From: Candidatus Bathyarchaeota archaeon
GTDB taxonomy: Archaea; Thermoproteota; Bathyarchaeia; Bathyarchaeales; Bathycorpusculaceae
Length of the DNA stretch: 64,000 nucleotides
Assembly (NCBI GenBank): GCA_026014585.1
Contig: JAOZIA010000002.1
Location: 417,677 to 481,676, forward strand
Direction: 5' to 3'
Below the pieces are notes generated by a model. That model saw only the letters and a list, made by a program, of their open reading frames with translations, did no database searches and had not been told where the DNA came from. Of this stretch, positions 4,887 through 54,100 are shown in pieces (the stretch's first letter is position 1; each line of letters opens with the position of its first letter). The position numbers and the translations under genes were made by a program.

Positions 4887-4887
4887 G

Positions 4888-17606: not shown

Positions 17607-17742
17607 CGGGCTTCAGGCTATTTGTGGGTTTTGCTCGTAATTTAAGATTGCTGTCTCAAATTATTTTTTCTGCCACATGGTTTTAGGCATTTTTAATCAT
17701 TTGACTGGCACATAATAAACTGAATCTTTATTAAGATAATTG

Positions 17743-17757: not shown

Positions 17758-17808
17758 AAACGTTTCAAAAAGATACGGTTAACTGAAAGAATGTACAGAG
17801 GCATATAA

Positions 17809-18255
17809 ATGGAGTTAAACGAAACAGACATTAAAATCCTCAAAGGTCTCCTAGAAGACGCCCGATTCTCAAGCAGACAAATAGCCAAAAACGTAGGAGT
17901 ATCCGTAGGCACCGTTCTATCAAGAATTAAAAAAATGGAAGACGAAGGACTAATCAAAGGTTACGCAGCAATTCTTGACCACGAAAAACTAGGCTTCCAA
18001 CTAACAGTCGTAACCGAAATCACCGTTTCAAAAGGCAGACTAGTCGAAATGGAAATGGAAATCGCAAAAATCCCAAACGTCTGCGGAGTCTACGATGTAA
18101 CAGGTTCAACTGATGCAGTAATCATCGGCAAATTCAAAAACCGCGAAGACCTTGGAGCATTCACAAAGCACATTTTGGCACTACCTTATATTGAAAGAAC
18201 TAACACGCATGTAGTTCTAACAACAGTTAAGGAAAACTTCCAAAACCTGCTATAA
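17809..18255 (+). CDS. Lrp/AsnC-family transcription regulator
   Basis: This 148-residue classical feast/famine regulator has an N-terminal helix-turn-helix (residues about 2-60, with QIAKNVGVSVGTVLSRIKKME) and a C-terminal RAM effector domain (about 65-145, with VTGSTDAVIIGKFKNREDL). AGAGGCAT precedes the ATG. It is clearly a paralogue of the regulator at 1166 but with a different effector-site sequence. A perfect palindrome sits in its promoter. The effector is unknown. Confidence 0.88.
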   Translation: MELNETDIKILKGLLEDARFSSRQIAKNVGVSVGTVLSRIKKMEDEGLIKGYAAILDHEKLGFQLTVVTEITVSKGRLVEMEMEIAKIPNVCGVYDVTGSTDAVIIGKFKNREDLGAFTKHILALPYIERTNTHVVLTTVKENFQNLL

Positions 18256-18373
18256 GCACCCTTTCATCTCAATTATTCTTCTGCGCATATGGATTAGAGT
18301 AAACTTTGGTTTTTAGCGCAATATTAAAAGGCAGCCAGCAGTAAAAATAGTAAAACTTTGGACTGGGCAAATC

Positions 18374-29811: not shown

Positions 29812-29906
29812 ATTCAGTTTTTCATTTAGAGTTTATTATATACACCAAAAATAGTTTTTTAAATGCAGTTACCAGCTATCAATAAAACATTTCAAGACAC
29901 CATCAA

Positions 29907-29935
29907 CAAATCTTATAAGACAAAAGCTTGCCATA
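29907..29935 (+). repeat. Duplicated promoter copy 2, upstream of second Kelch gene
   Basis: This is the second copy of the 28664-28692 segment, differing by one base. Its TATA-like TCTTATAAGA lies about 44 bases before the GTG start at 29956, about the same distance as in copy 1. Both genes may therefore be controlled by the same factor. Confidence 0.7.
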
Positions 29936-29955
29936 CCTTCTTAGAGGATAGAGAA

Positions 29956-33358: not shown

Positions 33359-34384
33359 ATGAACAGTCAAGAATCCAAACCCCAAATTTTCAAATTAAAA
33401 ATTAATCACGAAACCAAAATTCGGCTGCTACCCCTGATTGCCTTTGTAGCTGCGTTTGTTTTGCTGGGTCTTCTTGAACCAAACTCTTTTGGAGCGTTGT
33501 GGAAGGGTAGAACTTTTGAGTTATTCTTCATCTGGCTCATTGGATTGGAGTTGATGTTAGGCTGGGACACATTGCCAACAAATAGGCTGGACAAAAAAGT
33601 CTGGGTAAGAAGGATTCTTTTTGGTATTTCCTTGTTGCTTCCCATCTTGTATGTTGTCTTGTCGTTTTATGGTGGACTAAACAATGCAATAACTACTCTT
33701 TCTGTTCAAAATGGGGTAGCTTGGGCTTCATCGATGCCGCTTTCAACAGAATACCTAGTTTTCGGGTTATTTTTCTGTATAATGATTTTTCTGGCTTACG
33801 GGAAGAAGGGTTTAGCAGCATTTGCCATTCCAGTGTTTTTTGCAGTCTTAATCGGGGCAATCTACACTATCGATAATGTTTTTCCGTATGGACAGTTTAC
33901 GCCTTTTCAAATCTTTGTTCCAACAACCGCAGCAGTAGCCCAATCAGTCCTTGCCGTAATGGGGTACCACACAAGCCTGGACACTTCGCAGACACCAACG
34001 CTCCAAGTTTGGGGCACATCAGGAACCACACAGTTTCAAATTGCTTGGCCATGCGCTGGAATTGAAAGCCTGCTTATTTTCACGGTGATTGCTTTGCTGT
34101 TTTTGAAGCGGATACCACTTTCTTGGAAGGCTAAAGCAGGGTTTTTTGCTTTGGGAGCGGCTGTGACGTATTTGATTAATATTTTTAGGATTGTGTGGAT
34201 TTTTTTGTTGGGGATGAATTTTGGTGAGACCTCGGCGCAGGTGCAGGAGTTCCATTTCTACTTTGGCCCCATGTATTCGATGACGTGGATTATTGTTTAC
34301 CCGCTGATTCTGATTTTGGGGTTGATGCTTTGGCAAAAACACAAAGCACCTAAACAGACACAAAAAACAATGAAAAAAACGTAA
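33359..34384 (+). CDS. Archaeosortase/exosortase-family protein
   Basis: This multi-pass membrane cysteine transpeptidase (341 residues, about eight membrane segments) cleaves C-terminal anchors of exported proteins. The catalytic triad-like residues are all visible: Cys in WPCAGIESLL (about 230), Arg in LINIFRIVWIF (about 275) and His in EFHFYFGPMYSMTW (about 295). The N-terminal third is an extra membrane region. Its substrates should carry a short motif followed by a C-terminal helix and basic tail. The two Kelch proteins nearby have this layout, but I cannot confirm that they are substrates. Confidence 0.85.
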   Translation: MNSQESKPQIFKLKINHETKIRLLPLIAFVAAFVLLGLLEPNSFGALWKGRTFELFFIWLIGLELMLGWDTLPTNRLDKKVWVRRILFGISLLLPILYVVLSFYGGLNNAITTLSVQNGVAWASSMPLSTEYLVFGLFFCIMIFLAYGKKGLAAFAIPVFFAVLIGAIYTIDNVFPYGQFTPFQIFVPTTAAVAQSVLAVMGYHTSLDTSQTPTLQVWGTSGTTQFQIAWPCAGIESLLIFTVIALLFLKRIPLSWKAKAGFFALGAAVTYLINIFRIVWIFLLGMNFGETSAQVQEFHFYFGPMYSMTWIIVYPLILILGLMLWQKHKAPKQTQKTMKKT

Positions 34385-37161: not shown

Positions 37162-37749
37162 ATGGTGTTTTGCCCTTCGTGTGGAAAAGCCAATCCTGAC
37201 GATGCAGTTTACTGCAATTACTGCAGCAAACCAATTCCTAGACTAAATAACAGATACCCTGCTTCACCACCAAAAGCCCCCATTATAACACCACTGCAGA
37301 TAACCTCAAACAGACCCCGTATAGCTAGGAAAGTGGAAACGGTCTTGATTTTTTTAATCATTATTCTCATAGTAGCGTTTATATTATTGGGCAGTGAAGC
37401 TGGACATGAAACGCTTATTTTCGCCAACATTTACACTGACACATATAATTCTTATGGGACTGAAATATACAGGATAAATATTGACATCAAAAACATTGAC
37501 TCGACCCCTAAATTAATAGATTCGATTTATCTTAACGGAAACCCCTATGATAGTTACAGTTTACCATCTACTCCAGAACAATATGGGCTACTGAAACAAA
37601 TAGTTCAGCCAGATCAACACGTCTACGGACAAATTCACTTACCAACCACGTCATATGGAACAGGTGACTGGAACAGAGGAGATTACGTAAAAGTCAGCAT
37701 TAAGGCATCTACCGGTGGAGATTGCACTACCTCCGTGCATCTAGCATAA
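37162..37749 (+). CDS. Zinc-ribbon membrane protein with exterior beta domain
   Basis: I place the start at ATG 37162, since the longer frame (to 37099) has an arginine-rich lead without a ribosome-binding site. The 195-residue protein begins with a zinc ribbon (CPSCGKANPDDAVYCNYCSK), a Pro-rich linker, one membrane segment (about 60-80), and a C-terminal beta-sandwich (about 90-195). The ribbon is likely inside the cell and the beta domain outside. This is the first of the zinc-ribbon membrane proteins leading into the kinase island. Confidence 0.65.
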   Translation: MVFCPSCGKANPDDAVYCNYCSKPIPRLNNRYPASPPKAPIITPLQITSNRPRIARKVETVLIFLIIILIVAFILLGSEAGHETLIFANIYTDTYNSYGTEIYRINIDIKNIDSTPKLIDSIYLNGNPYDSYSLPSTPEQYGLLKQIVQPDQHVYGQIHLPTTSYGTGDWNRGDYVKVSIKASTGGDCTTSVHLA

Positions 37750-37764
37750 CTGAAAATATGTGGA

Positions 37765-38628
37765 TTAGTAGATTTTTGTGTCATCTTCTTCTTTTAGAGA
37801 CGCCCCACATCTGCCGCAGAACCGATTTTTTACAGGGCTTATTTTGCCACATCTGAAACACCGTACGGTACCTGGCGTCAGCATTGGTTGCTTTTGTTGT
37901 ACTAAGTAGTGACCGCATTTGCCACAGTAAACTAAACCGGGCACTATTTCAAACCCGCAATTTGGGCATCTAACCATGGCGGGTGACTTCGCGTAGGGCA
38001 TCAGTTTTCTGCGGGATTGCACAGAGTTTCCGTAATCTGCAAGTAAAGCACCTGACTCGACAAGGGCACCACATGCACAAATCGGCATGCCCAGCAGGGC
38101 TAAATTGTAACCTATATTGTTTATTATTGAATGCTTGTCAACGTTGTCTGCTGTTATTAAGCCAACAGAGAGTAAAACTGCTCCAACAGCAACAACCCAA
38201 GCATATCTTGTTAAGAGGTTTCGACGTTTTATCCAAAACATTGCGGCTGCATCTAGGTAACCGTTTAAGCAGTCAACAATTGTTCCTGTTACTCCAAAAA
38301 TGGAAACCATAATTCCGAGTAGGTATATTCCAAAACCTATATTGTTTTGAAATGTGGATTTATCTAAACTTCTGGTAATAATTGAACCTATAAAAAACAG
38401 GCTTATTCCTGCTGCTGCTATTGTTGTCCTTATGAAAAGTGATTTTTTATAGTTTATGTTGCAAATAATGGTTGATGTGATTATCCCGAAAATACCGAAA
38501 ACGATGATTACTACTCCTACAAGAATGACACCTAAACATGCATAATATTCAATCGAATATTTTGTCCATGAACCCAAAAGAGAGGAACCAATAATAGATA
38601 GGATCAGCCCTCCAGCTATCTCATACAC
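37765..38628 (-). CDS. Multi-pass membrane protein with two zinc ribbons
   Basis: The 287-residue protein has six membrane segments (near residues 5-22, 28-55, 65-85, 95-120, 140-165, 170-195) and a C-terminal tail with two zinc ribbons (RCPNCG/YCGKCG and RCFRCG/FCGRCG). It starts with GTG. The ribbons are the same type as in the vWA and FHA proteins that follow. No enzyme motif is visible, so a sensing or scaffold role in the phosphorylation island is only a guess. Confidence 0.65.
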   Translation of the reverse strand: MYEIAGGLILSIIGSSLLGSWTKYSIEYYACLGVILVGVVIIVFGIFGIITSTIICNINYKKSLFIRTTIAAAGISLFFIGSIITRSLDKSTFQNNIGFGIYLLGIMVSIFGVTGTIVDCLNGYLDAAAMFWIKRRNLLTRYAWVVAVGAVLLSVGLITADNVDKHSIINNIGYNLALLGMPICACGALVESGALLADYGNSVQSRRKLMPYAKSPAMVRCPNCGFEIVPGLVYCGKCGHYLVQQKQPMLTPGTVRCFRCGKISPVKNRFCGRCGASLKEEDDTKIY

Positions 38629-38806
38629 ATCATTGTTAACAGCTTTTGGATGGTTTAAGCCAGTTCACCCTCTACAGCCTTGAGAGCAAAATTTTGCTTT
38701 TTGCTCAATTGTGTTAAGATGTTTTATTGACCTTTTTGCTTCTTAAGCTTTTATTATAAAAGGGGCAGATGTTCAAAAAAACAAGCCGTAACTTGTTCGG
38801 GTAAAA

Positions 38807-39754
38807 TTAAAGTTGTTTTCCGCATTTCCTACAGAATTTCGCTGTTCCCCTGTTATCTGCACCGCAACTCTTGCATCTAATAATGGCAGGCTGTGCTGGG
38901 GCTGGTTTGACTACGGGTGCGGGAGCGACTGCTGGCACGACAGGCGTGTTTTGTTGAGTTGGGATTTGTTTTGGTGGTTGTGTTTTTATGGTTTTTAGTT
39001 CTTTTTTGGCACGAACAAACATGACACTGACAAGGCTGCAAGCTGCAATTAGCACTATCGCGACAACCCATAGGAGCCAGTTAGTTGAGTATGGGTTTAC
39101 TACAGACATGTCTAGTGTTACGTCTGAGGAAGAAGTAGCATAACTAGCTTGATTAGCTGGAATTAGGGTTATTGTTTCAGTTGCACCTTGAGCTAACAGA
39201 CCAATTGATAACGTGTAAGTTATATTGGTTAAACTTAGGCTAACCAGATCTCCTTCTTTAGAGGTGCTGGGTGCTGTTAAAGTAAGTCCGGGGCTTGTTG
39301 TATTCACCCATGTCAAGCTTGCTTTGTTGGTTGTACCGTTACTGGCAACTATCCCACTTATATATGCTTCAAAATTCAGAAGCACACTCATATTTTCGCC
39401 AGTTGAGGATATGTAACTAAGACCAGTTAGTGTGGCGTTTCCTTTACTAATGGGATTAATACTTCCAGAGAAGCTATCACTTGAAATGCCCGTTATGTTT
39501 TCCAAGTTCAATACCAAGTTTAGGTTGCTATTGATCAAGGTGCAGGAAACATTTGCTTTTTCTCCAGGGCTGATTGTTCCCGTGGTCATGTTTATTGTTG
39601 AACTGAAACTGCCTGAAATCCAATCGTTACTTACTGAGAAAGAACATGTTTTTGTTTGGGTTTTTGCTTGAACGACAGTGATACCGATTGCTGTAAGCAG
39701 AAATATACATAGAAGAGTTACTACCACTTTACTGGCAAATCGTCTGTGGGACAT
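38807..39754 (-). CDS. Exported membrane-anchored protein with C-terminal zinc ribbon
   Basis: The 315-residue protein has an N-terminal signal peptide (about 8-31), an exterior beta-rich, Ser/Thr/Asn-rich domain (about 32-225), a membrane helix (about 228-250), a Pro-rich linker, and an interior zinc ribbon (RCKSCG/FCRKCG). The order exterior domain, helix, linker, ribbon suggests it passes an outside signal to an inside partner. AGGAT precedes the ATG. No receptor family is recognised. Confidence 0.7.
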   Translation of the reverse strand: MSHRRFASKVVVTLLCIFLLTAIGITVVQAKTQTKTCSFSVSNDWISGSFSSTINMTTGTISPGEKANVSCTLINSNLNLVLNLENITGISSDSFSGSINPISKGNATLTGLSYISSTGENMSVLLNFEAYISGIVASNGTTNKASLTWVNTTSPGLTLTAPSTSKEGDLVSLSLTNITYTLSIGLLAQGATETITLIPANQASYATSSSDVTLDMSVVNPYSTNWLLWVVAIVLIAACSLVSVMFVRAKKELKTIKTQPPKQIPTQQNTPVVPAVAPAPVVKPAPAQPAIIRCKSCGADNRGTAKFCRKCGKQL

Positions 39755-39877
39755 ATTATCCTATAATATCTCGTTGCCTTTTTAAGGTTTGTCGATTAAA
39801 GGGAGTTTAGATTTTTCTTAAAATACAAAAAATATCAAAATAAATGTCGAGATAAAACAGCAAAAAAGAAGCAACTA

Positions 39878-40624
39878 TTAAACTATTGACCAAGCAATAG
39901 CCAAAGAAAGGGCAAGCCCAGACTTTTTTGAGTTCACTAACGTTGCAATTTCATCACAGGCAACCTGAGGATTATTGAACTTGGCGACTTTAGCCACTAT
40001 TTCTTTCTGCCCAATTACGTGGGGTAAATCAAGATTGCTTAGGCAAATATAATCTCCTTTTGCCATTGATATGCTGATGTAGGGGTCTGTCTTGGTTCCT
40101 TTAAACGTTTGAATTGTCTCATTCTCTTTTACCAGCAAAAGTCTTGGACCATCAATACATAAGGCTGTGACGACCCCGTTGTCTATTATGCTAACCAGCA
40201 GTCCTGTTTCTTCTTTTTCTTGGGCGTTAGAGAATGCAAAAGGGTATTGTTGGTCTAAATGCTCTTTTAACTCAGTTAAACACTGCTTGTAGTTTGTGTT
40301 TTGTTTATCCCACGTAACATGAGACAAGAGCATACTTAGCAGGTTGCGTCCATCTATGACTTTTGCTAACCCCTTCACAATAACACACAGTATTCGTCTG
40401 TGGTTTTCCTGATTAAACAGTGAAGTTACATCCAGCAGTGTGAAACTGTCTTTATTTTCTACTTCTTGACTTGCTAAACTGGAATAGCCAAAAGCGAGTT
40501 CTTGAAAAGGTGTTGACTGAGTACTCTTTGAAGTGGTTACTTTTGTGATGGGGCTTCCGCATGATTCGCAAAATGCAGCTTTTTCATTATTTGGTTTTCC
40601 ACAGATTTCGCAGTAGTTACTCAT
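39878..40624 (-). CDS. Zinc ribbon plus degenerate PP2C-like domain
   Basis: This 248-residue protein has an N-terminal zinc ribbon (YCEICG/FCESCG) and a C-terminal domain (about 40-248) that follows the PP2C fold in outline: VENKDSFTLLDV lines up with the first PP2C motif, LCIDGPRLLLVKEN with the GDSR strand, and DYICLSNLDLPH with the later DG strand. The metal-binding aspartates (DG of DGMGGH, the late DN) are absent, so catalysis is unlikely. It may bind phosphoprotein or regulate the active phosphatase encoded at 41118. The fold match is by pattern only. Confidence 0.6.
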   Translation of the reverse strand: MSNYCEICGKPNNEKAAFCESCGSPITKVTTSKSTQSTPFQELAFGYSSLASQEVENKDSFTLLDVTSLFNQENHRRILCVIVKGLAKVIDGRNLLSMLLSHVTWDKQNTNYKQCLTELKEHLDQQYPFAFSNAQEKEETGLLVSIIDNGVVTALCIDGPRLLLVKENETIQTFKGTKTDPYISISMAKGDYICLSNLDLPHVIGQKEIVAKVAKFNNPQVACDEIATLVNSKKSGLALSLAIAWSIV

Positions 40625-40758
40625 TTTTCTTCGCCAGAACCATTTTTTATATTGCTATTAACCCTTTTTAAATTGAGCGGGTAATCCCCTGTTCCCTTGA
40701 TTACCGCAAACCAATTAAATACCTACTTGACATATCCATTATTCATCAAATTCCAGAG

Positions 40759-41139
40759 ATGAGTACAAGGTTGAACATGCAAATTTCAGACCTCGTTATT
40801 CAATGGAAAGCGGCGGCTGCTTCGTATTTACCTGAGGCACTAAATATAGCAGCAATAGTTTTGATAATCGTAACCGCTGTTCTTCTAAGCATTTTCATGG
40901 TTCTTCTTCTTAAAACCAAAAAGAAAATAAAACTTGCAAAATCCAATCAAAAAACTGCAGAAGTGCTCTGCTGGAAATGCAAACAGAAAAACACTTCAGC
41001 CGCAAAATTCTGCCGAGCATGTGGAGCAAAATTACTCAGCACTGCATCTGCACCCAGCAGTGTTGCTTGCCCAAAATGTGGCGCGTCTAATTCATCCACA
41101 GCGAGGTTCTGTCGTAAATGTGGAAAACCATTAAAGTAG
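40759..41139 (+). CDS. Membrane protein with two C-terminal zinc ribbons
   Basis: The 126-residue protein has one hydrophobic segment (about 28-52), a Lys-rich stretch, and two zinc ribbons (CWKCK/FCRACG and CPKCG/FCRKCG). The stop codon at 41137-41139 overlaps the next gene, which starts at 41118, by 22 bases in a different frame, implying translational coupling with the phosphatase. TATA-like ATTAAATAC is at 40711-40719. Confidence 0.7.
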   Translation: MSTRLNMQISDLVIQWKAAAASYLPEALNIAAIVLIIVTAVLLSIFMVLLLKTKKKIKLAKSNQKTAEVLCWKCKQKNTSAAKFCRACGAKLLSTASAPSSVACPKCGASNSSTARFCRKCGKPLK

Positions 41140-42140
41140 CTTACACAAAAAAGCTTTCAATCTTAATTACTGTTCTGGCAGTAGTTGGAGTTACAGCTTT
41201 TTGGCTTTTTGTGCCACACGGCGGAGTGTACAACCTTCTGGACATTCTCTCATCAACAATAATTGTGGGTTTCTCAATTCTCTTATCCATAAGCATAAGC
41301 AGTTACGCTGAGGAAAGAAAAAAGATTCTGAAGCTTAGAAAAGCAACAAAAAAAAGTTTTCTTTCAACAAACGAAATCAGTTGCATTTCAGATATAGGAA
41401 AAGTAAGAGAACTCGACGAGGACAGCGTTTTTGCCTCAAGAGTGTTCTCCACAATAGGTGGTGTGACAAGCCAAAAAATTTTGATGATAGTAGCTGACGG
41501 CATGGGCGGTCACAGTAAAGGTGAAGTCGCCAGTGCATTAGGAGTTGCCACAGTTGTCAATCAGTTAATCCCCCAGCTCATGTCACCTAAAGAAGTTGAC
41601 TACAAAACTGCTTTATCTTCAAGCTTAAAAGAAGCAAACAGTGCCATCCTTAACTATGCAATGGATCATCCTGAATGTGAGGGCATGGGCACAACCATGA
41701 CTGCATCAATTCTGGACCAGAACAAAATCTACATTGGACATGTTGGAGACACAAGAGCATACAAAGTCACTGACGAAACAATAGTCCAGCTAACAAAAGA
41801 CCACTCGTTAGTGCAGGAACTGGTTGATAAGGGTCAATTAACTGAAGAGGCAGCAAGATATCATCCGCAGAAAAACGTTATAACAAGAGTTGTAGGCGTT
41901 TACGCAGACGTTAATGTTGACACGTACGAATATCCGTGGGGTAATAATGAGCAACTGCTAATTTGCTGTGACGGCTTAGTTAACCATGTTAAAGACAAAG
42001 AAATCCAAGAAATCACCCTGTCATCGCCAAACACTCAAGAAGCATGCAAAAACCTCATAAACTTGGCAAATGACCGCGGCGGCAAAGATAATATCTCAAT
42101 AGTTTTAACACCGCCACTTGAACGCATCTTTAAAAATTAA
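41118..42140 (+). CDS. Membrane-anchored PP2C-type Ser/Thr phosphatase
   Basis: The 340-residue protein has two membrane helices (about 12-32 and 40-60) and a cytoplasmic PP2C domain. All the key motifs are present: RELDEDSVFAS, VADGMGGHSKGEVAS (metal aspartate about 128), GMGTTMTASIL, YIGHVGDTRAYKV, LICCDGL, and GGKDNISIVL near the end (metal Asp and Asn). It should remove phosphate from Ser/Thr substrates of the nearby kinases using Mn or Mg. It overlaps the preceding zinc-ribbon gene. The N-terminal start at ATG 41118 could also be a slightly later one. Confidence 0.92.
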   Translation: MWKTIKVAYTKKLSILITVLAVVGVTAFWLFVPHGGVYNLLDILSSTIIVGFSILLSISISSYAEERKKILKLRKATKKSFLSTNEISCISDIGKVRELDEDSVFASRVFSTIGGVTSQKILMIVADGMGGHSKGEVASALGVATVVNQLIPQLMSPKEVDYKTALSSSLKEANSAILNYAMDHPECEGMGTTMTASILDQNKIYIGHVGDTRAYKVTDETIVQLTKDHSLVQELVDKGQLTEEAARYHPQKNVITRVVGVYADVNVDTYEYPWGNNEQLLICCDGLVNHVKDKEIQEITLSSPNTQEACKNLINLANDRGGKDNISIVLTPPLERIFKN

Positions 42141-42162
42141 AGGTATTGAAATGTTTTTTCAG

Positions 42163-42639
42163 TTAGTATCCGCGTTGGAAGAGGTTGAAGAACCATTGTT
42201 TTATCGAGTTGATTTTTGCTGCAAATAGTAAACTGTAGTAAACCAAGTATGCACCAGCAAGAAAACTCATCACCATTACCATTATACTAACGGATGACAT
42301 TTCGGCGCCTGCTTGAGCAATTTTTAGTCCTCCCAGTAAGAAGCAGAAGACACCTGCAAAAAGCCAAAAAGACCAGTGCATTAACATTTTTTCATAGAAA
42401 TAGATGGTTTCTCTTCCAATCAAAATGCTGTTTTTAATGGTTCCAATAGCAAAAAACACAGGAACCCCCGCGGCAGTCATTGTTGCAATAGTAACCAAAA
42501 CCCTGTTTGTTAAATCACCAGCGATTAACACAAATAAACCATCATCAAACCCTGCCATGTAAATTAGGTATACACCGCAGAGAAACAGGGGAAAATTATT
42601 CCAGAACTCATGTTTCATAGACCATCTAAACTTTTGCAT
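42163..42639 (-). CDS. Four-helix membrane protein
   Basis: The 158-residue protein starts at ATG 42637-42639, which has GGAGGAT eight bases upstream; the longer reading to 42684 overlaps the next gene. It has about four membrane segments (near 12-35, 50-72, 85-105, 115-138) and a Gln/Phe-rich C-terminus. No domain is recognised. It follows the vWA gene on the same strand, with the start codon beside that gene's stop, so they are co-transcribed. Confidence 0.7.
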   Translation of the reverse strand: MQKFRWSMKHEFWNNFPLFLCGVYLIYMAGFDDGLFVLIAGDLTNRVLVTIATMTAAGVPVFFAIGTIKNSILIGRETIYFYEKMLMHWSFWLFAGVFCFLLGGLKIAQAGAEMSSVSIMVMVMSFLAGAYLVYYSLLFAAKINSIKQWFFNLFQRGY

Positions 42640-42641
42640 AA

Positions 42642-43664
42642 TTAATCCTCCTCCGTTTCTAGCCGTAACCTGCATTTCCCACAAAACTTTGCCCCGGGTC
42701 TAACAGGTTCACCGCATCTTGGACAAGTTGCATGTGAAAGGTACAGCGGCGAACGACATGATCCGCAGAATTTTGCATCTGCCCTGTTCATGTGTTCACA
42801 GTTGGGGCATCTTATTCCTTGCACGGTAGGTGGTCTTTTGAGGATTGTCGTTTGGACTGCACGTGTAAGGATGGTTGCGCCTTTTTCAAGTTCAGGAAGG
42901 AACAAAATCAAAGGAATCGCTATCATCATCAGTATACGTGAACCATAATGTAAAGTGGGCGAAATCACTGATGTTGCTATCTGCTTGAAGTTTTGAACAA
43001 GCTGCGACCCCGAAGCAGCAAAGAAATAAAAGTTTGCAACCGCGTCTGGATCACTGGGGTTTCCGCGGATAGCAATTTGCTGGCAAGTGATTATGTCCGC
43101 ATCAGCTCCAAACGCTACAGAATAAACAGTAATACCGTTGTTTGCGGCATCATCTGCTGCATCTACTGGCGTGGACCTTCTATCGGAGTTAGTGCAGCCG
43201 TCGGTCATTGAAACAATAAAATAAGCAGTGCCTGAGTCTTTCGAATTTTTAATTTGATCCACAGCTTCCTGCAAGCCATCCCCAAGCGCGGTCCCACCTA
43301 TATAGCTGAGTTGATTAATTGCAGTATTTAATTTGGCGGCATCTGATGTTAAGGGACAATTAATATACACATTATCGGAAAATGAGATTAAAGCTACTTG
43401 TATGTTAGGTTTGGTTCCCACCTGAGCATCCTGCACAAAGTTTAATGCGGCTTCTTTTGCTGCATCAATTTTTGTTTGAGTCCCCGTTCCTGAAGAACTT
43501 GACATGCTTCCAGAAACATCCAAAACCAAGTAAACCGCGTATTTACCTTCTGATCCAGAGACTGATAGATAACTGGCAATACCTGCTGTAACAAGAATAG
43601 CTATTGCAATGATAATTTGCAGTTTACGCTTGTCTTTTTGCTTCGTTTTTACACCAGCAGTTCC
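42642..43664 (-). CDS. Membrane vWA-domain protein with two zinc ribbons; start unresolved
   Basis: The vWA domain (MIDAS residues in VLDVSGSMSSS, GGTALGDG and MTDGCTN) is followed by a hydrophobic segment (SRILMMIAIPLILFL) and two C-terminal zinc ribbons (RCPNCE/FCGSCR and TCPRCG/FCGKCR). The open frame runs back to a stop at 43665-43667 and clearly encodes an N-terminal membrane anchor (QIIIAIAILVTAG), but it has no ATG, GTG or TTG before the TTG at 43529 inside the vWA domain. A TTG in the next frame (43673-43675, reading MANKELLV) suggests a one-base deletion or a frameshift; a non-AUG start is the alternative. Confidence 0.8.
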   Translation of the reverse strand, partial: GTAGVKTKQKDKRKLQIIIAIAILVTAGIASYLSVSGSEGKYAVYLVLDVSGSMSSSSGTGTQTKIDAAKEAALNFVQDAQVGTKPNIQVALISFSDNVYINCPLTSDAAKLNTAINQLSYIGGTALGDGLQEAVDQIKNSKDSGTAYFIVSMTDGCTNSDRRSTPVDAADDAANNGITVYSVAFGADADIITCQQIAIRGNPSDPDAVANFYFFAASGSQLVQNFKQIATSVISPTLHYGSRILMMIAIPLILFLPELEKGATILTRAVQTTILKRPPTVQGIRCPNCEHMNRADAKFCGSCRSPLYLSHATCPRCGEPVRPGAKFCGKCRLRLETEED

Positions 43665-43764
43665 TTATTTGCCAATAAGTCACTTTAAGGTTTGTGGTAC
43701 TACCTCTGAATCAATTAGCCCACAAAGAAAAAGCCCTCTTTTTTGCGGCAGAAGTAGCGTAAGA

Positions 43765-43773
43765 CTATAAAAT
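43765..43773 (+). promoter_or_regulatory. TATA box of the vWA/FHA/kinase operon
   Basis: CTATAAAAT is centred about 25 bases before the expected transcription start near 43794. From there the mini-ORF at 43803-43868, the vWA gene and the FHA and kinase genes follow on the same strand. Confidence 0.5.
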
Positions 43774-43805
43774 GATTCCGAAAAAATCTGCTAACAAAAG
43801 AAATG

Positions 43806-43868
43806 ATGGACGAAGGTGAATCAAAAATTTTAAAAAAAGTTTTTTCCGCAAGAATTAAAAAGGCATAG
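43806..43868 (+). CDS. Leader mini-ORF upstream of vWA gene
   Basis: A 20-residue frame (MDEGESKILKKVFSARIKKA; a second ATG at 43803 adds one residue) starts about ten bases after the predicted transcription start. It ends with TAG at 43866-43868, at the foot of the hairpin that hides the ribosome-binding site of the next gene. It may act as a leader peptide coupling translation. It could also be a chance frame. Confidence 0.35.
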   Translation: MDEGESKILKKVFSARIKKA

Positions 43869-43885
43869 CTTCCATATTAGGAAGC
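43868..43885 (+). promoter_or_regulatory. Hairpin sequestering the ribosome-binding site
   Basis: GCTTCC (43868-43873) and GGAAGC (43880-43885) are exact complements around ATATTA. The Shine-Dalgarno-like AGGAAG of the vWA gene (GTG at 43888) is in the right arm, and the stop codon of the mini-ORF touches the left arm. The arrangement would hide the site unless a ribosome reads through the leader. Confidence 0.4.
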
Positions 43886-43887
43886 CA

Positions 43888-45180
43888 GTGAGCGACTTGA
43901 ATTCAGGCATAGACCTTAAATGTATTGTAAATCGTGAGCATTTACAGTCAGATTCTAAAGCTCTTGTATATCTTGCAATGGACATATCTCCCCCCGAAGT
44001 TTCCCCTAATACCCCAAACGATTTACAGCCAGTCAACCTCTGCATTGCGCTAGACCGCAGTGGTTCAATGAAAGATGAAAACAAAATTGAACAAGCAAAA
44101 ATAGCGACAATGCAGCTAATCCAAGAATTAAAACCCTCAGATTTTGTTTCGCTAGTCACTTTTTCAAATCGTGAAAAAGTTGAAGTTAGTTCACGTTCAG
44201 CCGCAGACATCTATGCCTTCAGCAATGCTATAAATCAAATAAACGCACGCGGCGCAACAGACATTTATTCTGCATTACAAGCTGCCCTCAACGAGGTGGC
44301 TCAGCAACGGGCGGTTTTTCCAGGACAACCTGTGAATCGTATCATCCTGCTAACAGATGGGCAACCGACTTCGGGGAAAGATAAAATTGAAGAATTTGTT
44401 ACTCTATGCGAGTTAATACGCAAAAATGATATTTCCGTGACTACATTGGGTTTAGGGAGCGACTACAATGAACAGTTGCTAACCACCATAGCATCAACAA
44501 CAGGCGGATTATGGTACCACGTCACTGACCCAAACAATCTGCCAATGCTTTTCAATGAAGAACTAGTCGAAATGAAAACTGTTGTTATGCAAAAGCCTGA
44601 ACTTCAAATTCAACCCATGTCAGGAGCAGAAATTGAAGATATCCACAAGGTTCGACCAGTATTAGACCTTGTTCAGAATCCTGAAATACGACAGGGAAAA
44701 TACATTTTGCCCCTCAATGACATAGTCGGCGGGCAACCTCAAAACGTTGTCGTTAAAGTGATGTTGCCTCCAAGACAGGATGGAAAATACCGAATTGCAC
44801 AAGCAACACTCACAGGCGGCGGAAAAACAATAACCCGCGATGTAGTGGTAACCTACACAAACGACCCCTCGTTATATCAAAAAGAAACAGACCCATATCC
44901 ACGCATTCTTCTCATGACTTCAGATGGCACTATAATGCTACGGCAAGGCGTGGCCTCTGGAGATGAGACAGTGATTAACCAAGCCCAAACAATACTCAAA
45001 AAAACAATGAATGACCCGAACGCAGTAACAGTTGTTAGAAACAACGAACTCACCATGGACATGGTTAATAGATTTAACAATTCCTACGAGAAAACCGTGA
45101 TAAAGAAAGGCAATCTCTCTGACGAAGAGAAAAAGAAGGTTATCTCTGAAACAACAATATTGAAAAAGAAGAGTAATTAA
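43888..45180 (+). CDS. von Willebrand A domain protein
   Basis: The 430-residue protein starts with GTG. The vWA domain (about 40-230) has the MIDAS set LDRSGSMKDEN, the threonine of RGATDIYS and LTDGQPTSGKDK. A beta-rich domain (about 235-340) and a helical charged C-terminus follow. It has no membrane segment or zinc ribbon, unlike its neighbour on the minus strand. vWA proteins next to kinases, FHA and PP2C proteins occur in several bacterial phosphorylation modules. It is first in the plus-strand operon. Confidence 0.88.
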   Translation: MSDLNSGIDLKCIVNREHLQSDSKALVYLAMDISPPEVSPNTPNDLQPVNLCIALDRSGSMKDENKIEQAKIATMQLIQELKPSDFVSLVTFSNREKVEVSSRSAADIYAFSNAINQINARGATDIYSALQAALNEVAQQRAVFPGQPVNRIILLTDGQPTSGKDKIEEFVTLCELIRKNDISVTTLGLGSDYNEQLLTTIASTTGGLWYHVTDPNNLPMLFNEELVEMKTVVMQKPELQIQPMSGAEIEDIHKVRPVLDLVQNPEIRQGKYILPLNDIVGGQPQNVVVKVMLPPRQDGKYRIAQATLTGGGKTITRDVVVTYTNDPSLYQKETDPYPRILLMTSDGTIMLRQGVASGDETVINQAQTILKKTMNDPNAVTVVRNNELTMDMVNRFNNSYEKTVIKKGNLSDEEKKKVISETTILKKKSN

Positions 45181-45192
45181 AGGTGAAAAAAT

Positions 45193-45735
45193 ATGAACTG
45201 CCCAAAATGTGGAAATGACAACCCCTCAGACAATAAATTCTGCGACAATTGTGGAAGCGAACTAGTATCAACCGTAGCAGCACCAACACCTGTATCTACA
45301 GGTGGAATTGAATGCTCAGCTTGTAAAGCAGCAAACCCAATAGGGTCAGCCTTCTGCGAAAGCTGCGGCGCAAGCCTAGAAAGCGCTTCAGCACCAATAG
45401 CAGCACCTGTTGCACCACAACCAACTTTTGCACCACCTCAAGCACAATTTGCGTTAGTCTGCCCAGATGGAACAGAAATATCGATATCCTCAAGCAAGAC
45501 CATTGGACGGCTTGATTTAGCAAAATATGCCGCGCCAAACGAGACCATGTGGATTTCAAGACAACACTTTGACATATTGGAGGAAAATGGGGCACCCTTC
45601 ATCATTGACGAAAAGAGTGCTAACGGAACAAAACTTAACGGAAAAGAAATCAAACAGCAGGGAAAGCAACAGTTAAAGAGCGATGACGAAATTATCGTCG
45701 GCGATGCAGTAAAATTAGTGTTCAAAATAAAATAG
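45193..45735 (+). CDS. Double zinc-ribbon FHA-domain protein
   Basis: The 180-residue protein has two N-terminal zinc ribbons (CPKCG/FCDNCG and CSACK/FCESCG), an Ala/Pro linker, and an FHA domain (about 100-180). The FHA core is visible: KTIGRLDL, the phosphothreonine-binding WISRQHFDI, and KSANGTKLNG. It should read phosphothreonine on partners of the kinases. AAAGGTGA lies upstream of the ATG. It sits 12 bases after the vWA gene and 32 bases before the kinase. Confidence 0.9.
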   Translation: MNCPKCGNDNPSDNKFCDNCGSELVSTVAAPTPVSTGGIECSACKAANPIGSAFCESCGASLESASAPIAAPVAPQPTFAPPQAQFALVCPDGTEISISSSKTIGRLDLAKYAAPNETMWISRQHFDILEENGAPFIIDEKSANGTKLNGKEIKQQGKQQLKSDDEIIVGDAVKLVFKIK

Positions 45736-45767
45736 CAGTCGCTTTAAGTCGGAAGGGGTAAGCTCTG

Positions 45768-46883
45768 ATTAAAGGCACGACAATCCAAGGCTCTAGAGGT
45801 TACTATGTCATTGATAACTTTCTACTCCAAGGTGGCATGGGCAAACTCTACTGTGGACGGTCATCAACAGGAAGCAAAGTTGTAATCAAAGAACCCATTC
45901 GAAAAGGCGACGCTGACGATGCAATCCGCATTGAAAAACTAAAAGTTGAAGGAGAAAGTCTCTCCAAGGTATCCCACAAAAACATAGTTCGATTTGTCGA
46001 TTGCAGAGAAGAGCCCAACAATTACTACCTAATCATAGATTTTATTCCTGGAAAAACAATGAAAGATGCTTACTGGAGAAACCCCACGAACGAAAATGAA
46101 GCTAAACAACATGCAGTCACTATCCTTCAAGCCTTAGGCTACCTACACAACATGAACATTATCCACAGAGACGTAAAACCACAAAACGTGCTGCTACCAA
46201 ACGACAAACCTGTCATGATTGACTTTGGAGGCGCAAAATACGGGTACATGCAACTCCCCTTAACCTTTGGCGACACTGTGGTTGGCACCCCCGGATGGAC
46301 TGCGCCTGAACAAATGCATGGGATAACCGCACCCAGATGCGACCTTTACGGTGTAGGTGCCATCATGTTTTTCCTCTTAACAGGTTGCCCCCCACAAAAC
46401 TACACTAAAGCTGATGGCTCTGTTGAGTCCCCACGAAAAATAAACCCGAGGATTTCGCTGGAAACAGAAAGAATCGTGCTTAAAGCATTAAGTTTTGACC
46501 CCTCCAAACGTTACCAGATTGCAGAGGATATGATACGGGAAATCCAAGGCCAATGTGTCTCCCAGGGCAGTGCTCACGTTTTCTGCAGAGGAACAAAATA
46601 TGAGCTCTCAAGAAGACTTGGTATTGGGCGTTCGACTTCTTGTGAAATCGCCATTAGTGACACCATGGGTTTTGTTTCAAAACGTCATGCAGAAGTTTTC
46701 CCTGACCAAGGAAGATACTGGATTGAAGACACACAAAGCACAAACGGCACCTTCTTGTACCGTAACGGTGTTTTCCAAAGAATCCAAAGAAGCGAACTTC
46801 ATGACGGCGATTTGATAGCGTTGTGCTATAAAAAAGATAAAGGACCCTACATAACCCTAACGTTCAAGAAAGGCATCAATTGA
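45768..46883 (+). CDS. Ser/Thr kinase with C-terminal FHA domain; non-AUG start
   Basis: The eukaryotic-type kinase (about 1-260) has a glycine-rich loop beginning LLQGGMGKLY, the Lys of VVIKEP, catalytic IIHRDVKPQNVLL, DFGGAK and GTPGWTAPEQ. A C-terminal FHA domain (about 285-371, LGIGRSTSCEIAIS, SKRHAEVFP, STNGTFLY) follows. The N-terminal part of the kinase lies upstream of the first ATG (45837). The frame there contains only CTG (45765) and ATT (45768) before the stop at 45759, with GGAAGGGG at 45751-45758. I give ATT as the start because its spacing to GGGGTAA is best. No membrane segment is present. Confidence 0.88.
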   Translation: MKGTTIQGSRGYYVIDNFLLQGGMGKLYCGRSSTGSKVVIKEPIRKGDADDAIRIEKLKVEGESLSKVSHKNIVRFVDCREEPNNYYLIIDFIPGKTMKDAYWRNPTNENEAKQHAVTILQALGYLHNMNIIHRDVKPQNVLLPNDKPVMIDFGGAKYGYMQLPLTFGDTVVGTPGWTAPEQMHGITAPRCDLYGVGAIMFFLLTGCPPQNYTKADGSVESPRKINPRISLETERIVLKALSFDPSKRYQIAEDMIREIQGQCVSQGSAHVFCRGTKYELSRRLGIGRSTSCEIAISDTMGFVSKRHAEVFPDQGRYWIEDTQSTNGTFLYRNGVFQRIQRSELHDGDLIALCYKKDKGPYITLTFKKGIN

Positions 46884-46899
46884 GCTGGGAGAAACCGCT

Positions 46900-47988
46900 T
46901 TGCATGAAAGTCATGGAAACGGAAGCATCCTTGTAAACCGGTTTGAAATATTAAGTTTGTTTAAAACAACAGAGCTTGGTCAAACCTACCTAGCTTTGGA
47001 CAGGGTGACTCAGAAGAGAGTGGTTGTTAAATGCGTCAAATGCACTGCTAGTAATGAACGAAACAGTAAAATTAAGCTTGAACGACTTATGGTTGAAGCA
47101 AAGGTTTTACAGTCTCTTAACCATCCATCCATAGTGAAGTATGTTCACTCTTGGGGTGACAGATTCGACTTCTACTTAGTCACAGAATATGTCGACACAA
47201 AAAACATGAAAGAAACTTTTTTTCACAAACCCCAAAAACGAGCAACTGTAATCGAGTATATTCTTCAACTGCTCGAAGTCACAGAATATCTGCATTACAA
47301 AGGCGTAGTCCACCGAGACATTAAACCCTCAAACATACTGCTAAGCGACAACATAGTGCTGATAGATTTTGATGCATCTGAATCCTGCTACCTAAATTTT
47401 GACCACAAAAACGTAGTCATCGGCACGCCCGGATACCAATGCCCTGAATCATTCCAAGGCGTAATATCCCCACAAAGCGACATATTTTCAATCGGCGGAA
47501 CTATTCTTTTCCTGCTTACAGGTGAAAATCCCTCAGGTAGCCTGACACGGTTCCGAAATCTCCCCGTTGAACAAGACCTGCTTGAGATAGCTTTTAAAGC
47601 CTTAAACCCCGATCCCGCTTTGAGGTTTAGGACAGTTTTTGAGATGAAACAGAAGCTGCTCAGTTTAACCAGTCCCCAAGCAAAGCTTGTGATGGGCGAT
47701 GTACAGTGTCTACTCATGAAAAATCTTGTTCTTATAGGAAGAAGTGTTGACGCTGACTTTAAAATCTTGGATCCCTCAAAGTTTGTGTCACCTATTCATG
47801 CAGAGGTTGTTTTTGAAAACAAAAATTTTTTCATTTCAAACAAAAGCATAAACGGCACCTTCATTTACAGGCGTGATGAGTACCGAAAAATCGATAAATG
47901 GGCACTTCGTGACGGCGACGTAATTGTGTTATGTTACAAGCCCCAGAAGGGACCACACAAAATGGTGAAGTTCAGGCAAATTTCTTAA
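46900..47988 (+). CDS. Ser/Thr kinase with C-terminal FHA domain, DFG changed to DFD
   Basis: This is a 362-residue paralogue of the previous kinase, starting at TTG 16 bases downstream of the previous stop codon. The kinase lysine is in VVVKCV, the catalytic loop VVHRDIKPSNILL is intact, but the DFG motif reads DFD (LIDFDASES). The activation segment ends in GTPGYQCPESF. The C-terminal FHA domain (about 280-360) has LIGRSVDADF, SPIHAEVVF and SINGTFIY. The DFD change leaves the metal aspartate in place but alters the hinge glycine. The two kinases plus the FHA protein suggest a phosphorylation relay. Confidence 0.87.
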   Translation: MHESHGNGSILVNRFEILSLFKTTELGQTYLALDRVTQKRVVVKCVKCTASNERNSKIKLERLMVEAKVLQSLNHPSIVKYVHSWGDRFDFYLVTEYVDTKNMKETFFHKPQKRATVIEYILQLLEVTEYLHYKGVVHRDIKPSNILLSDNIVLIDFDASESCYLNFDHKNVVIGTPGYQCPESFQGVISPQSDIFSIGGTILFLLTGENPSGSLTRFRNLPVEQDLLEIAFKALNPDPALRFRTVFEMKQKLLSLTSPQAKLVMGDVQCLLMKNLVLIGRSVDADFKILDPSKFVSPIHAEVVFENKNFFISNKSINGTFIYRRDEYRKIDKWALRDGDVIVLCYKPQKGPHKMVKFRQIS

Positions 47989-50764: not shown

Positions 50765-51982
50765 TTATTCAAAGTTCTTTTTGAGGTTCTTTGCAAGCTC
50801 AGCGATAAACTCTTCAGTGTCAACCTGCCGGTTTTTGGAGTCAGGGGTTGCAACCCGCAGTAAATCGCCAGTCATAACACCGCTCTCAACAGTTACAATT
50901 GCTGCCTGCTCCAACTTATTAGCAAAATCAACCACTTCAGGTGTACCGTCCAGTTCACCGCGTTTCTTTAAGCCACCTGTCCAAGCAAAAATCAGCGCCA
51001 TACTGTTACTTGAGGTCTTCTCGCCTTTCAGATACTTATAGTAGTGACGCTGAACAGTTCCGTGAGATGCCTCAAACTCATAATATCCTTCAGGACTGAC
51101 CAGCACTGAAGTCATCATTGCTAAGCTGCCATAGGCTGAGCCCAGCATGTCACTCATTACGTCACCGTCATAATTTTTGCATGCCCAAAGCAAGCCGCCT
51201 TCAGTTTTCATTATTCGGGCAACGGTGTCATCGATTAGTGTGAAGTTGTAGATTAAGCCTGCAGCCTCGAATTTTTCTTTCCAGTTAACCTGATACTCTG
51301 CCTCGAAGACTTTTTTGAATTCTCCATCGTAAGTTTTAGATATAGTGTCTTTAGCGCCAAACCACACATCCAACTTCTGGTCATATGCGTAGGTGAAACA
51401 TGCTTTAGCGAAACTTGCTATTGACTTGTCGGTGTTGTGGATGCCTTGAATGATTCCGGAACCCTTGAAGTCATGGATTGTTCCACGCCAAAGTTCCTTG
51501 CCGGCGCTGTTTGTGAAAACCATCTCGGCTTTTCCAGCTTCGGGCACGCGGTATTCAAGGTTTTTGTATATGTCGCCGTAGGCGTGTCTGCCGATGTGGA
51601 TGGGTTTTTTCCAGGCTCTGACTGCGGGCGGCACGTTTTTGACTATGATTGGTGCTCGAAAAACGGTTCCGTCTAAGGCTGCTCTTATGGTTCCGTTTGG
51701 GCTATTCCATTCCTTTTTGAGGTTGTATTCTTTGATACGTTCCTTGTTGGGGGTGATGGTTGCGCATTTTACGCCGACGCCATATTTTTTGATGGCTTCT
51801 GCCGCGTCAAGGGTGACTTGGTCGTTGGTGTCGTCCCTGTTTTTCAGGTGCAAGTCATAGTAGTCAAGTTTCATGTCCAGATAGGGCAGTAGAAGCTGGT
51901 CTTTGACCATTTTCCACATTACCCGTGTCATTTCGTCGCCGTCAAGCTCAACAATGGGGGTTTTAACAATTATTTTATTCAT
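50765..51982 (-). CDS. icd: NADP-dependent isocitrate dehydrogenase
   Basis: The enzyme oxidises isocitrate to 2-oxoglutarate with NADP. From ATG 51980-51982 (with GGAGGAAAA upstream) it has 405 residues, the length of eukaryotic-type NADP-IDH, and begins [14 protein letters not shown]. Other marks are [16 protein letters not shown], the metal loop [11 protein letters not shown] and the cofactor region [17 protein letters not shown] longer reading to 52078 would overlap aconitase. The start codon is one base away from the aconitase stop, so the two are co-transcribed. Confidence 0.93.
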
Positions 51983-51983
51983 T

Positions 51984-53930
51984 CTATTTTCCTCCACTTG
52001 CCTTAACCGTGTAAGGCAGTAATCCGCCTTCGAAGAGGATACTTTTTTGTCTCTGCGAAAGGTTGTATATAAGCTCAATTTCCAAATTTTTGGTTTTATC
52101 CACCAGAATTACTGCTTCATTATTCTGCAGTTTCTCTTTGAGGTTTGGAACCTCTATTTCGTCACCCTGAGATATCTTGTCATAGTCTGCCATGTCCTTG
52201 AAACTGAAGGGGATGATGCCAAAGTTGACCAAGTTTGCGGCGTGAATGCGTTCAATCGATTTAGCAATGACTGCTTTTACATCCAGATACATTGGACAAA
52301 GCGCTGCATGCTCTCTTGAGCTACCCTGTCCATAAGACTCACCCGCAACAACCACTGTAGCTAAGCCTTTTGCTTTGGCGTCAAGAGCCCGAGCAGGGAA
52401 GGCTTTGTCAACTGGTTCAAACACGTACTTTGAGTACTCGGGAACATTACTACGGTATTTGAGGCGAGCACCTGCGGGCATTATGTGGTCGGTTGTGATT
52501 TTATCGCCAACTTTGATGTCCACTACACCTTTAAGTTCAGGAGCCATCGGGGTGTTGACTGGTGGAGCACCAATATTGGGACCTCTTGCTATTGTTACTG
52601 TGCTGTCAGCGTTTTTGGGGAAAATAAACATGGAATCATCAATGAAGAATTGGCTGGGCATGTCAACTTTGGGGTATAGCATGCTAAATGTTCGGGGGTC
52701 AGTGACTTTGCCTGTGACTGCGGAAACCGCTGCTACTTCGGGGCTAACCAAGTAAACTTGAGCGTCTGCGGTGCCGCTTCTGCCCTCAAAGTTTCGGTTA
52801 CTGGTTCTTAGCGAAACGCCAGCGGACTTGGGGCTTTGACTGTTACCAATGCAAAATCCACATGCCGATTCTAGCAATCGGGCACCTGAATCCAGCAAAT
52901 CACTAATGTAGCCATCTCTGGTTGCCATCTGAAGCACCTGTCTTGAGCCGGGAGCAACACCGAAAGAGACGTCAGGGTGTACTTTTTTGCCTTTCATTAT
53001 TTTTGCTGCAGTTGCTATTTCCTTATAGGAGGAGTTGGTACAGGAGCCCAGCATGACTTGGTCGACTTTGAGGTCTTTTAATTGGCTGATTTTTATGATG
53101 TTACCTGGGCTATGGGGTGCCGCGGCTAAGGGTTCAATTTTGCTAAGGTCAAGCTCAACCACTCTGTCGTATTCTGCGTCATCATCTGCTTTGAGTTCAA
53201 CCCAGTCGGCTTCTCTGCCCTGTGCTTTTAGGAACTTTAGGGTTTGCTCATCAGAGGGAAAAATACTTGTGGTTACACCCATTTCCGCACCCATATTTGT
53301 GATTGTGGCTCTTTCGGGCACACTAAGATTTTGAACGCCTGGACCAGCATACTCCATGACTACACCCACGTTTCCTTTTACGGAGAAAATCTCCAGCATT
53401 TTAAGGACAACATCTTTAGCGCTGACCCATGACTGCAGGTTGCCTGTGAGGTTGATTTTGTAAACTTTTGGGCATACAAGATAGAATTCGCCGCCGCCCA
53501 TTGCAACAGCAACATCTAAGCCTCCTGCTCCAATAGCTATCATGCCTATACCGCCGCCTGTAGGTGTGTGGCTGTCGCTGCCCAGCAAAGTTTTGCCAGG
53601 TTTACCAAATCGTTCAAGATGGACTTGGTGACAGATTCCGTTTCCTGCTTTGGAGTAGATTATGCCATATTTTGCGGCGACTGTTTGCAGGTACTTGTGG
53701 TCGTCCGCGTTTTCAAAGCCGACTTGGATGGTATTGTGGTCGACGTAGCTTACGGAAAGCTCGGTTTTTACCTGTTTTAGTCCCATTGCTTCAAACTGTA
53801 GATATGCCATGGTTCCTGTGGCGTCTTGGGTGAGGGTTTGGTCGATTCGTATGCCGATTTCTCGCCCCGCTACGTATTCGCCTACGACTAAGTGATTTTC
53901 AATTATTTTTTGAGTGAGGGATTTGCCCAA
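51984..53930 (-). CDS. Aconitate hydratase
   Basis: The [4Fe-4S] enzyme interconverts citrate and isocitrate. From TTG 53928-53930 (AAGGAGA seven bases upstream) the 648 residues begin [14 protein letters not shown] as in the family. The cluster cysteines are in GSCTNSS and ACGFCIGN (about 345 and 400). The C-terminal swivel domain has [15 protein letters not shown]. The one-chain form with a large first part resembles the mitochondrial-type archaeal aconitases. It precedes isocitrate dehydrogenase and gives a partial TCA arm to 2-oxoglutarate, the substrate of the glutamate dehydrogenase at 31 kb. Confidence 0.93.
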
Positions 53931-54100
53931 TGATTGTCTCTCCTTACAAGCTCGCGTTTCTATGAGGGTATATGTCAATTAAGCGTTACAGAAATGCTTT
54001 TTTATATTCTTTAAGCAATCTGCACTCTGTTTTGGTTGTATGAGCGATTAGGTATCAAATATAATAAGGAAACAGGTATTGGTAAGCTGATGGGTCAATT

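What the first reader, a model, noticed from the sequence alone, without database searches (positions are those of the whole stretch)
37162..47988. A Ser/Thr phosphorylation island with writers, readers, erasers and shared zinc ribbons
Within 11 kb there are two kinase-FHA proteins, a zinc-ribbon-FHA protein, two vWA proteins, one active-looking membrane PP2C, a PP2C-like protein without metal residues, and five zinc-ribbon or plain membrane proteins. The motifs (HRDxKPxN, DFG/DFD, FHA GRS/H/NGT, MIDAS DxSGSM, PP2C DGMGGH and DN) are seen directly. Kinase-vWA-PP2C-FHA neighbourhoods are known for bacterial signalling and secretion modules; no secretion genes are here. I infer a self-contained archaeal signalling system in which outside-facing proteins report through zinc ribbons to kinases and phosphothreonine readers.
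Basis: partly seen in the sequence, partly recalled or inferred. Interest (0 to 1): 0.85.

Follow-up and report, generated by a model that had tools for sequence, protein, structure and literature searches.

The report
Archaeal kinase-FHA-vWA-PP2C phosphosignalling gene island
This stretch of an uncultured archaeon's chromosome holds what looks like a complete protein-phosphorylation switch (kinases, phosphatase, phospho-threonine readers and a scaffold resembling the Sulfolobus ArnA-ArnB motility switch) in a genome where no archaellin gene was found, and related sets of genes recur in distant archaea.

Summary
In detail: twelve ORFs between 37162 and 47988 carry the stated domains. The island has the genome's only three FHA domains, its only Pkinase matches besides one weak RIO/Bud32-like hit, and 7 of its 15 best zinc-ribbon ORFs. 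The cytosolic vWA (43888-45180) and zinc-ribbon-FHA (45193-45735) form an ArnB/ArnA-type pair: profile match to Sulfolobus ArnB/ArnE E=3.6e-34, spanning vWA, beta-sandwich and part of the helical tail. No archaellin was found in the genome. The kinase-FHA pair occurs in 2 of 257 class genomes, the PP2C in the same two; the congener keeps vWA-zrFHA-kinA-kinB and PP2C-like/PP2C on two contigs. In another phylum, six Methanofastidiosia genomes carry parts or all of a related cluster (zrFHA, membrane PP2C, kinA-FHA, membrane FHA, kinB-FHA). Some Thermoproteia carry compact FHA/vWA/kinase-FHA/PP2C clusters. kinB lacks the glycine loop and DFG glycine in all eight examples; the PP2C-like protein has Lys at a metal position in both orthologues. 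Best reading: an Arn-type phosphothreonine switch with its own writers and eraser, controlling something other than motility. New variant of a known kind. Biochemistry, output and the zinc ribbons' role are inferred.

The parts
37162..37749 (+). zinc ribbon + one hydrophobic segment + C-terminal domain (accessory, not conserved next to the core in the congener)
   Evidence: PF13240 E 1.4e-6; TM by hydropathy
37765..38628 (-). multi-pass membrane protein with C-terminal double zinc ribbon (accessory)
   Evidence: PF12773 E 1.9e-9; hydropathy
38807..39754 (-). signal-like N-terminus, presumed outside region, TM, C-terminal zinc ribbon (accessory)
   Evidence: PF24463/PF13240; hydropathy
39878..40624 (-). 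zinc ribbon + probable degenerate PP2C (pseudophosphatase candidate); Lys where DGMGGH has its metal Asp
   Evidence: orthologue in G017 beside PP2C (28% id); hhalign to PP2C P 3.2e-4, prob 39%; HMM E 0.019 (G017) and 0.32 (window) among 3051 ORFs
40759..41139 (+). one-TM protein with double zinc ribbon, overlaps the start of the PP2C gene
   Evidence: PF13240 E 6.2e-14; hydropathy
41118..42140 (+). PP2C Ser/Thr phosphatase with N-terminal hydrophobic segments, main metal motifs present
   Evidence: PF00481 E 1.3e-14; NF033484 Stp1 E 4.1e-79 above cut-off; alignment A4
42163..42684 (-). multi-pass membrane protein without ribbon; likely true start ATG near 42639 after GGAGGA
   Evidence: no Pfam hit; start region; hydropathy
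42642..43529 (-). vWA (DVSGS MIDAS) + TM + double zinc ribbon; ORF continues upstream to about 43652 with a further TM but no standard start
   Evidence: PF00092 E 6.3e-21, PF12773 E 7.7e-12; upstream frame
43888..45180 (+). ArnB/ArnE-type vWA scaffold: beta strands-vWA-beta sandwich-helical tail ending SETTILKKKSN
   Evidence: PDB 5a8j (ArnE/vWA2) E 3.5e-19, 8s05 (ArnB) E 2.4e-18; profile vs ArnB/ArnE E 3.6e-34 over 327 columns; tail alignment
45193..45735 (+). ArnA-type double zinc ribbon-linker-FHA
   Evidence: PF12773 E 4.9e-15, PF00498 E 2.8e-11; 56% id to G017; vs ArnA
45765..46883 (+). kinA: Hanks kinase with intact catalytic motifs + C-terminal FHA; CTG start proposed
   Evidence: PF00069 E 1.5e-36, PF00498 E 4.3e-15; motifs; start
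46900..47988 (+). kinB: kinase with degenerate glycine loop and DFD, + C-terminal FHA
   Evidence: PF00069 E 7.5e-37, PF00498 E 6.3e-11; motifs

Best explanation
The island encodes an Arn-type phosphothreonine switch with its own enzymes. kinB and the PP2C-like protein most likely act as regulators or binding platforms. The output is probably not archaellum control here, since no archaellin gene was found.
For: ArnB/ArnE match: PDB 5a8j E 3.5e-19 and 8s05_A E 2.4e-18 (a fetched Sulfolobales-type locus L200 identifies 8s05_A as ArnB and 5a8i/8s05_C as ArnA), profile E 3.6e-34, 99.9% over 327 columns. A vWA-FHA pair is present at all ten Thermoproteota ArnB-like loci read in full, with kinase-FHA and PP2C added in L193, L194 and L196. 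Congener G017 keeps vWA-zrFHA-kinA-kinB on one contig and PP2C-like/PP2C on another. kinA-FHA and PP2C found in the same 2 of 257 class genomes. Six Methanofastidiosia genomes hold zrFHA, TM-PP2C, kinA-FHA, TM-FHA, kinB-FHA in a consistent order as far as contigs reach; kinA of both groups form a supported clade, 98/89. kinA motifs intact, kinB DF[D/N/E] in all eight. Congener G016 has zinc ribbon, FHA and kinase in one ORF (L203). The genome's only FHA domains and only full Hanks kinases lie here. Mechanism of ArnAB: PMC12852372, PMC7472852, PMC6509490, PMC10470591.
Against: All functional steps are inferred. Pfam ArnB_C does not match the window vWA, though it matches ArnB. Pairwise similarity of the zrFHA to ArnA is limited to short ribbon and FHA stretches (E 2e-5). 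The two Methanofastidiosia genomes tested gave no hit to the window vWA (without a positive control), so the ArnB part may not be obligatory. Left-edge ribbon genes are not beside PP2C-like in G017. Archaellin absence rests on one Pfam search of a 95.6% complete genome.
Confidence: 0.72

Rival explanations
1. A membrane-stress or envelope sensing system in the style of bacterial PknB/PstP/Fha, where the membrane ribbon proteins and the membrane vWA are the inputs and the ArnA/ArnB-like pair is only an adaptor.
For: Several membrane proteins and a PP2C with hydrophobic N-terminus in the island; membrane PP2C, membrane FHA and a ribbon-bearing membrane protein with a PQQ-like region in Methanofastidiosia.
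Against: The kinases look soluble, without PASTA or TM; no wall-synthesis or division genes recognised nearby.
Confidence: 0.3
2. A defence or stress island (TerY-P-like vWA/PP2C/kinase triad, or a kinase-based anti-phage system).
For: Sporadic presence (2 of 257 class genomes); vWA+PP2C+kinase co-occurrence; kinases hit PADLOC PD-T4-6 models.
Against: The PADLOC hits span the kinase domain only and match many PD-T4-6 models, as generic kinases would; PP2C only weak, vWA and FHA none. No Ter genes or nucleases recognised among the window ORFs listed.
Confidence: 0.08
3. Remnant of a type VI or type VII secretion phospho-regulation cassette (PpkA-PppA-Fha).
For: Kinase, PP2C, FHA combination; weak TagH FHA model hits (E 1e-6 to 1e-10, all far below the curated cut-off).
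Against: No secretion component recognised among the window ORFs listed; the closest scaffold with a solved structure is ArnB/ArnE.
Confidence: 0.03
4. Chance neighbours: generic signalling genes accumulated in one region.
For: Mixed strands; ribbons are common in this genome (28 matches).
Against: Ribbon enrichment P about 7e-14; identical presence pattern of kinA and PP2C; conserved order in the congener; comparable cluster in another phylum.
Confidence: 0.03

Closest known systems
ArnA-ArnB(-ArnE) archaellum regulatory module of Sulfolobus (with kinases ArnC/ArnD and phosphatase PP2A)
   Same: Adjacent zinc-ribbon-FHA and vWA/beta-sandwich/helical-tail proteins; profile match to ArnB/ArnE E 3.6e-34; C-terminal S-E-x-T tail pattern.
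Compact Thermoproteia kinase-FHA/PP2C/TM-FHA/vWA/FHA clusters seen here (L193, L194, L196)
   Same: Same protein types side by side; kinase with C-terminal FHA and similar GPY tail in L193.
   Different: One kinase only; vWA fused to FHA in L193 and L196; few ribbons.
Methanofastidiosia cluster (L072, L073, L171-L175)
   Same: kinA-FHA orthologue, kinB-FHA with DFE, zrFHA, membrane PP2C, ribbon membrane protein.
   Different: No ArnB-like vWA detected; has membrane FHA and ribbon-TPR; kinA FHA degenerate.
Cyanobacterial 4-Cys-prefix kinases and PRK14559 zinc-ribbon PP2C (NCBIfam models)
   Same: Zinc ribbons attached to Ser/Thr kinase or PP2C signalling proteins; the zrFHA ribbon matches NF045510 above its cut-off (28 vs 24 bits).
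   Different: Ribbon fused directly to kinase or phosphatase; no Arn-type pair tested there.
TerY-P triad (from memory)
   Same: vWA, PP2C and kinase together, metal-binding Cys domain on the vWA protein.
   Different: No Ter proteins recognised here; not tested by profile.

Membership tests
ArnA-ArnB module | vWA inserted in a beta sandwich followed by a C-terminal helical domain | tested here: met
   Profile-profile 99.9%, E 3.6e-34, 327 columns covering vWA, sandwich and part of the helices; no structure model obtained
ArnA-ArnB module | Pfam ArnB_C (PF18677) domain | tested here: not met
   ArnB in L200 hits it (E 4.2e-24); the window vWA does not at E<=0.1
ArnA-ArnB module | Thr-bearing phosphorylated tail | tested here: inconclusive
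   Tail SETTILKKK aligns with SEVTKKLRS / SEVTKTMRT of ArnB/ArnE; phosphorylation untested
ArnA-ArnB module | Adjacent N-terminal zinc ribbon + C-terminal FHA partner with R, S, N reader residues | tested here: met
   GR, SRQH, NGT present
ArnA-ArnB module | Controls the archaellum | tested here: not met
   No archaellin (PF01917) found in the own genome (95.6% complete assembly)
Hanks-type Ser/Thr kinase | Gly loop, Lys, Glu, HRDxKPxN, DFG, APE in kinA | tested here: met
Hanks-type Ser/Thr kinase | The same full motif set in kinB | tested here: not met
   Gly loop and DFG glycine lost; Lys, Glu, HRD, Asn, DF Asp kept
PP2C (Stp1 type), 41118-42140 | Curated Stp1 model and metal Asp motifs | tested here: met
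   NF033484 265 bits vs 230
PP2C, for 39878-40624 | Homology and metal Asp residues | tested here: inconclusive
   Homology weak; the Asp of DGMGGH is Lys in both orthologues
TerY-P triad | TerY vWA with Ter neighbours | not tested
   No TerY or Ter model was run
T6SS PPP cassette | Neighbouring T6SS genes | tested here: inconclusive
   None recognised in the ORFs listed from the 64 kb window; rest of genome not scanned

The most novel reading that the evidence does not exclude
A general archaeal phosphosignalling system, recurring in Thermoproteota and Methanofastidiosia, of which the Sulfolobus ArnA-ArnB pair is a reduced, motility-recruited member. It pairs an active kinase with a conserved non-canonical kinase and, here, a dead phosphatase, and uses zinc ribbons as a shared docking code by which membrane proteins plug into the vWA scaffold.
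Probability: 0.3. Interest if true: 0.78.

Novelty: new variant of a known kind. Interest (0 to 1): 0.6.

Why it matters
ArnA-ArnB is a well studied archaeal phospho-switch, known as a regulator of motility and of the DNA damage response, with kinases and phosphatase encoded elsewhere. This island puts writers, reader, scaffold and eraser in one place in a genome without a detected archaellin, gives a minimal set to reconstitute, suggests the switch is not tied to motility, and points to a kinase (kinB) whose nucleotide site is altered in a similar way in two archaeal phyla.

Tried and rejected
AlphaFold2 of the PP2C-like protein from a single sequence gave pLDDT 38, unusable; no fold search was made. 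kinB of the two phyla as one clade: not recovered, but not rejected (AU p 0.18, long branches), so shared origin of kinB is open. PADLOC kinase hits judged generic. Plasmid collection: vWA hits cover at most 79% of the query at about 25-35% identity, zrFHA only ribbon hits. First 'of' attempt with a locus id failed; repeated with a G handle. The Kennelly 2014 and Esser 2016 reviews are not held, so whether the Thermoproteia operons were already described could not be checked; I have an unverified memory of a kinase/PP2C/FHA operon in Thermoproteus tenax. TerY paper searches returned nothing.
Full report
Observation. The listed proteins and motifs are present at the stated coordinates. The region is unusual against its own genome: three FHA domains in all, all here; Pkinase hits only here apart from one weak RIO/Bud32-like match on another contig; 7 of the 15 zinc-ribbon ORFs with E<=1e-4 lie among these 12 genes, P about 7e-14 for an assumed 2300 genes. 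Gene-model corrections: kinA probably begins at CTG 45765 rather than ATG 45837, because the GGMG loop lies upstream of that ATG, an AAGGGG stands before the CTG, and the congener has TTG at about the matching place; the ribbon-vWA ORF runs upstream through a hydrophobic segment without ATG/GTG/TTG; the small membrane protein probably starts at ATG 42639 after GGAGGA.

Identity of the core. The vWA protein at 43888 matches PDB 5a8j (ArnE/vWA2) at 3.5e-19 and 8s05 chain A at 2.4e-18. A Sulfolobales-type locus fetched here, L200, carries ArnA (206 aa, 5a8i, 1.9e-133), ArnB (380 aa, 8s05_A, 1e-240) and a second vWA protein of the ArnE kind. A profile of the window vWA with Thermoproteia relatives matches ArnB/ArnE at E 3.6e-34 through the vWA, the beta sandwich and part of the helical region, and the window's SETTILKKK end aligns with SEVTKKLRS and SEVTKTMRT. 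The next gene is ribbon-linker-FHA as in ArnA; the pairwise similarity is short. The Pfam ArnB_C model does not match, so I file it as ArnB-type, not as ArnB.

Enzymes. kinA keeps every catalytic motif; kinB keeps Lys, Glu, HRD, Asn and the DF Asp but has no glycine loop and reads DFD; the congener has DFN and six Methanofastidiosia have DFE. PP2C 41118-42140 is a canonical Stp1-type enzyme by curated cut-off. The 39878-40624 protein is a probable degenerate PP2C: an orthologue lies next to PP2C in the congener, both carry Lys at the DGMGGH Asp, but sequence support is weak.

Distribution. In the 257 class genomes searched, kinase-FHA hits over the whole query occur only in the window's genome and in congener G017; five other genomes match in the kinase domain alone. 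PP2C occurs in the same two. G017 has vWA-zrFHA-kinA-kinB on contig C234 and PP2C-like/PP2C on C158; different genes lie beyond PP2C-like and kinB there, so the place or the borders differ. In a scan of bacterial and archaeal genomes with two short peptide patterns, the only other full-length kinA relatives among the loci kept were two Methanofastidiosia contigs; a class-level search and contig reading there gave six genomes with parts or all of a cluster: ribbon membrane protein, zrFHA, membrane PP2C, kinA-FHA, membrane FHA, ribbon-TPR, kinB-FHA. The scan used narrow patterns and may miss others. The kinase tree joins kinA of both groups (98/89); kinB is unresolved. In Thermoproteota, all ten ArnB-like loci read in full have an FHA gene next to the vWA gene, and three (L193, L194, L196) add a kinase-FHA and a PP2C.

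Mechanism. Sulfolobus work (PMC12852372, PMC7472852, PMC6509490) shows that ArnA's zinc finger holds unphosphorylated ArnB at the sandwich and helical domains, that ArnC phosphorylates threonines of the ArnB C-terminal domain, that ArnA's FHA then binds tightly, and that PP2A reverses it. The reported role of the ArnA ribbon as a docking element gives a plausible reason for many ribbon proteins around a vWA scaffold; nothing here tests it. No archaellin was found in the genome, so the output is probably not motility.

Novelty. ArnA-ArnB, Hanks kinases, FHA proteins and PP2C are known. New here, as far as the held papers show, is the full set next to an Arn-type pair in this class, the related cluster in Methanofastidiosia, and the conserved altered kinase. 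Key reviews were not held, so this claim is provisional. Interest 0.6.

Noticed in passing
window 45765-45767: kinA seems to start at CTG, with AAGGGG upstream; the congener has TTG at nearly the same place.
   Followed up: yes
window 43530-43652 (-): The ribbon-vWA gene has an in-frame upstream extension with a TM segment but no ATG/GTG/TTG; CTG 43622, another non-standard start, or a sequence error are possible.
   Followed up: partly
L203 (congener G016) 3447-4943, 14329-18396, 18410-19207: Different kinase/FHA cluster in a congener: one ORF with zinc ribbon, FHA and kinase, plus a 1355-aa kinase and a separate FHA protein.
   Followed up: partly
window 31384-32634 and 50765-53978: Glutamate dehydrogenase on one side, isocitrate dehydrogenase and an aconitase-like gene on the other; the FHA protein GarA/OdhI controls related steps in actinobacteria (from memory). 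Probably coincidence.
   Followed up: no
window 28714-31095: Two neighbouring, similar Kelch-repeat proteins with signal-like N-termini and a C-terminal hydrophobic segment.
   Followed up: no
window 33359-34384: Exosortase-family (archaeosortase-like) protein after a DUF116 protein, near two radical SAM genes.
   Followed up: no
window 3520-4263 (-): DUF996 membrane protein with a C-terminal zinc ribbon, outside the island: ribbon-tailed membrane proteins are not confined to it.
   Followed up: no
window 25221-28535 (-): 1104-aa protein with three InlB B-repeat-like domains, in a stretch of marked GC skew.
   Followed up: no
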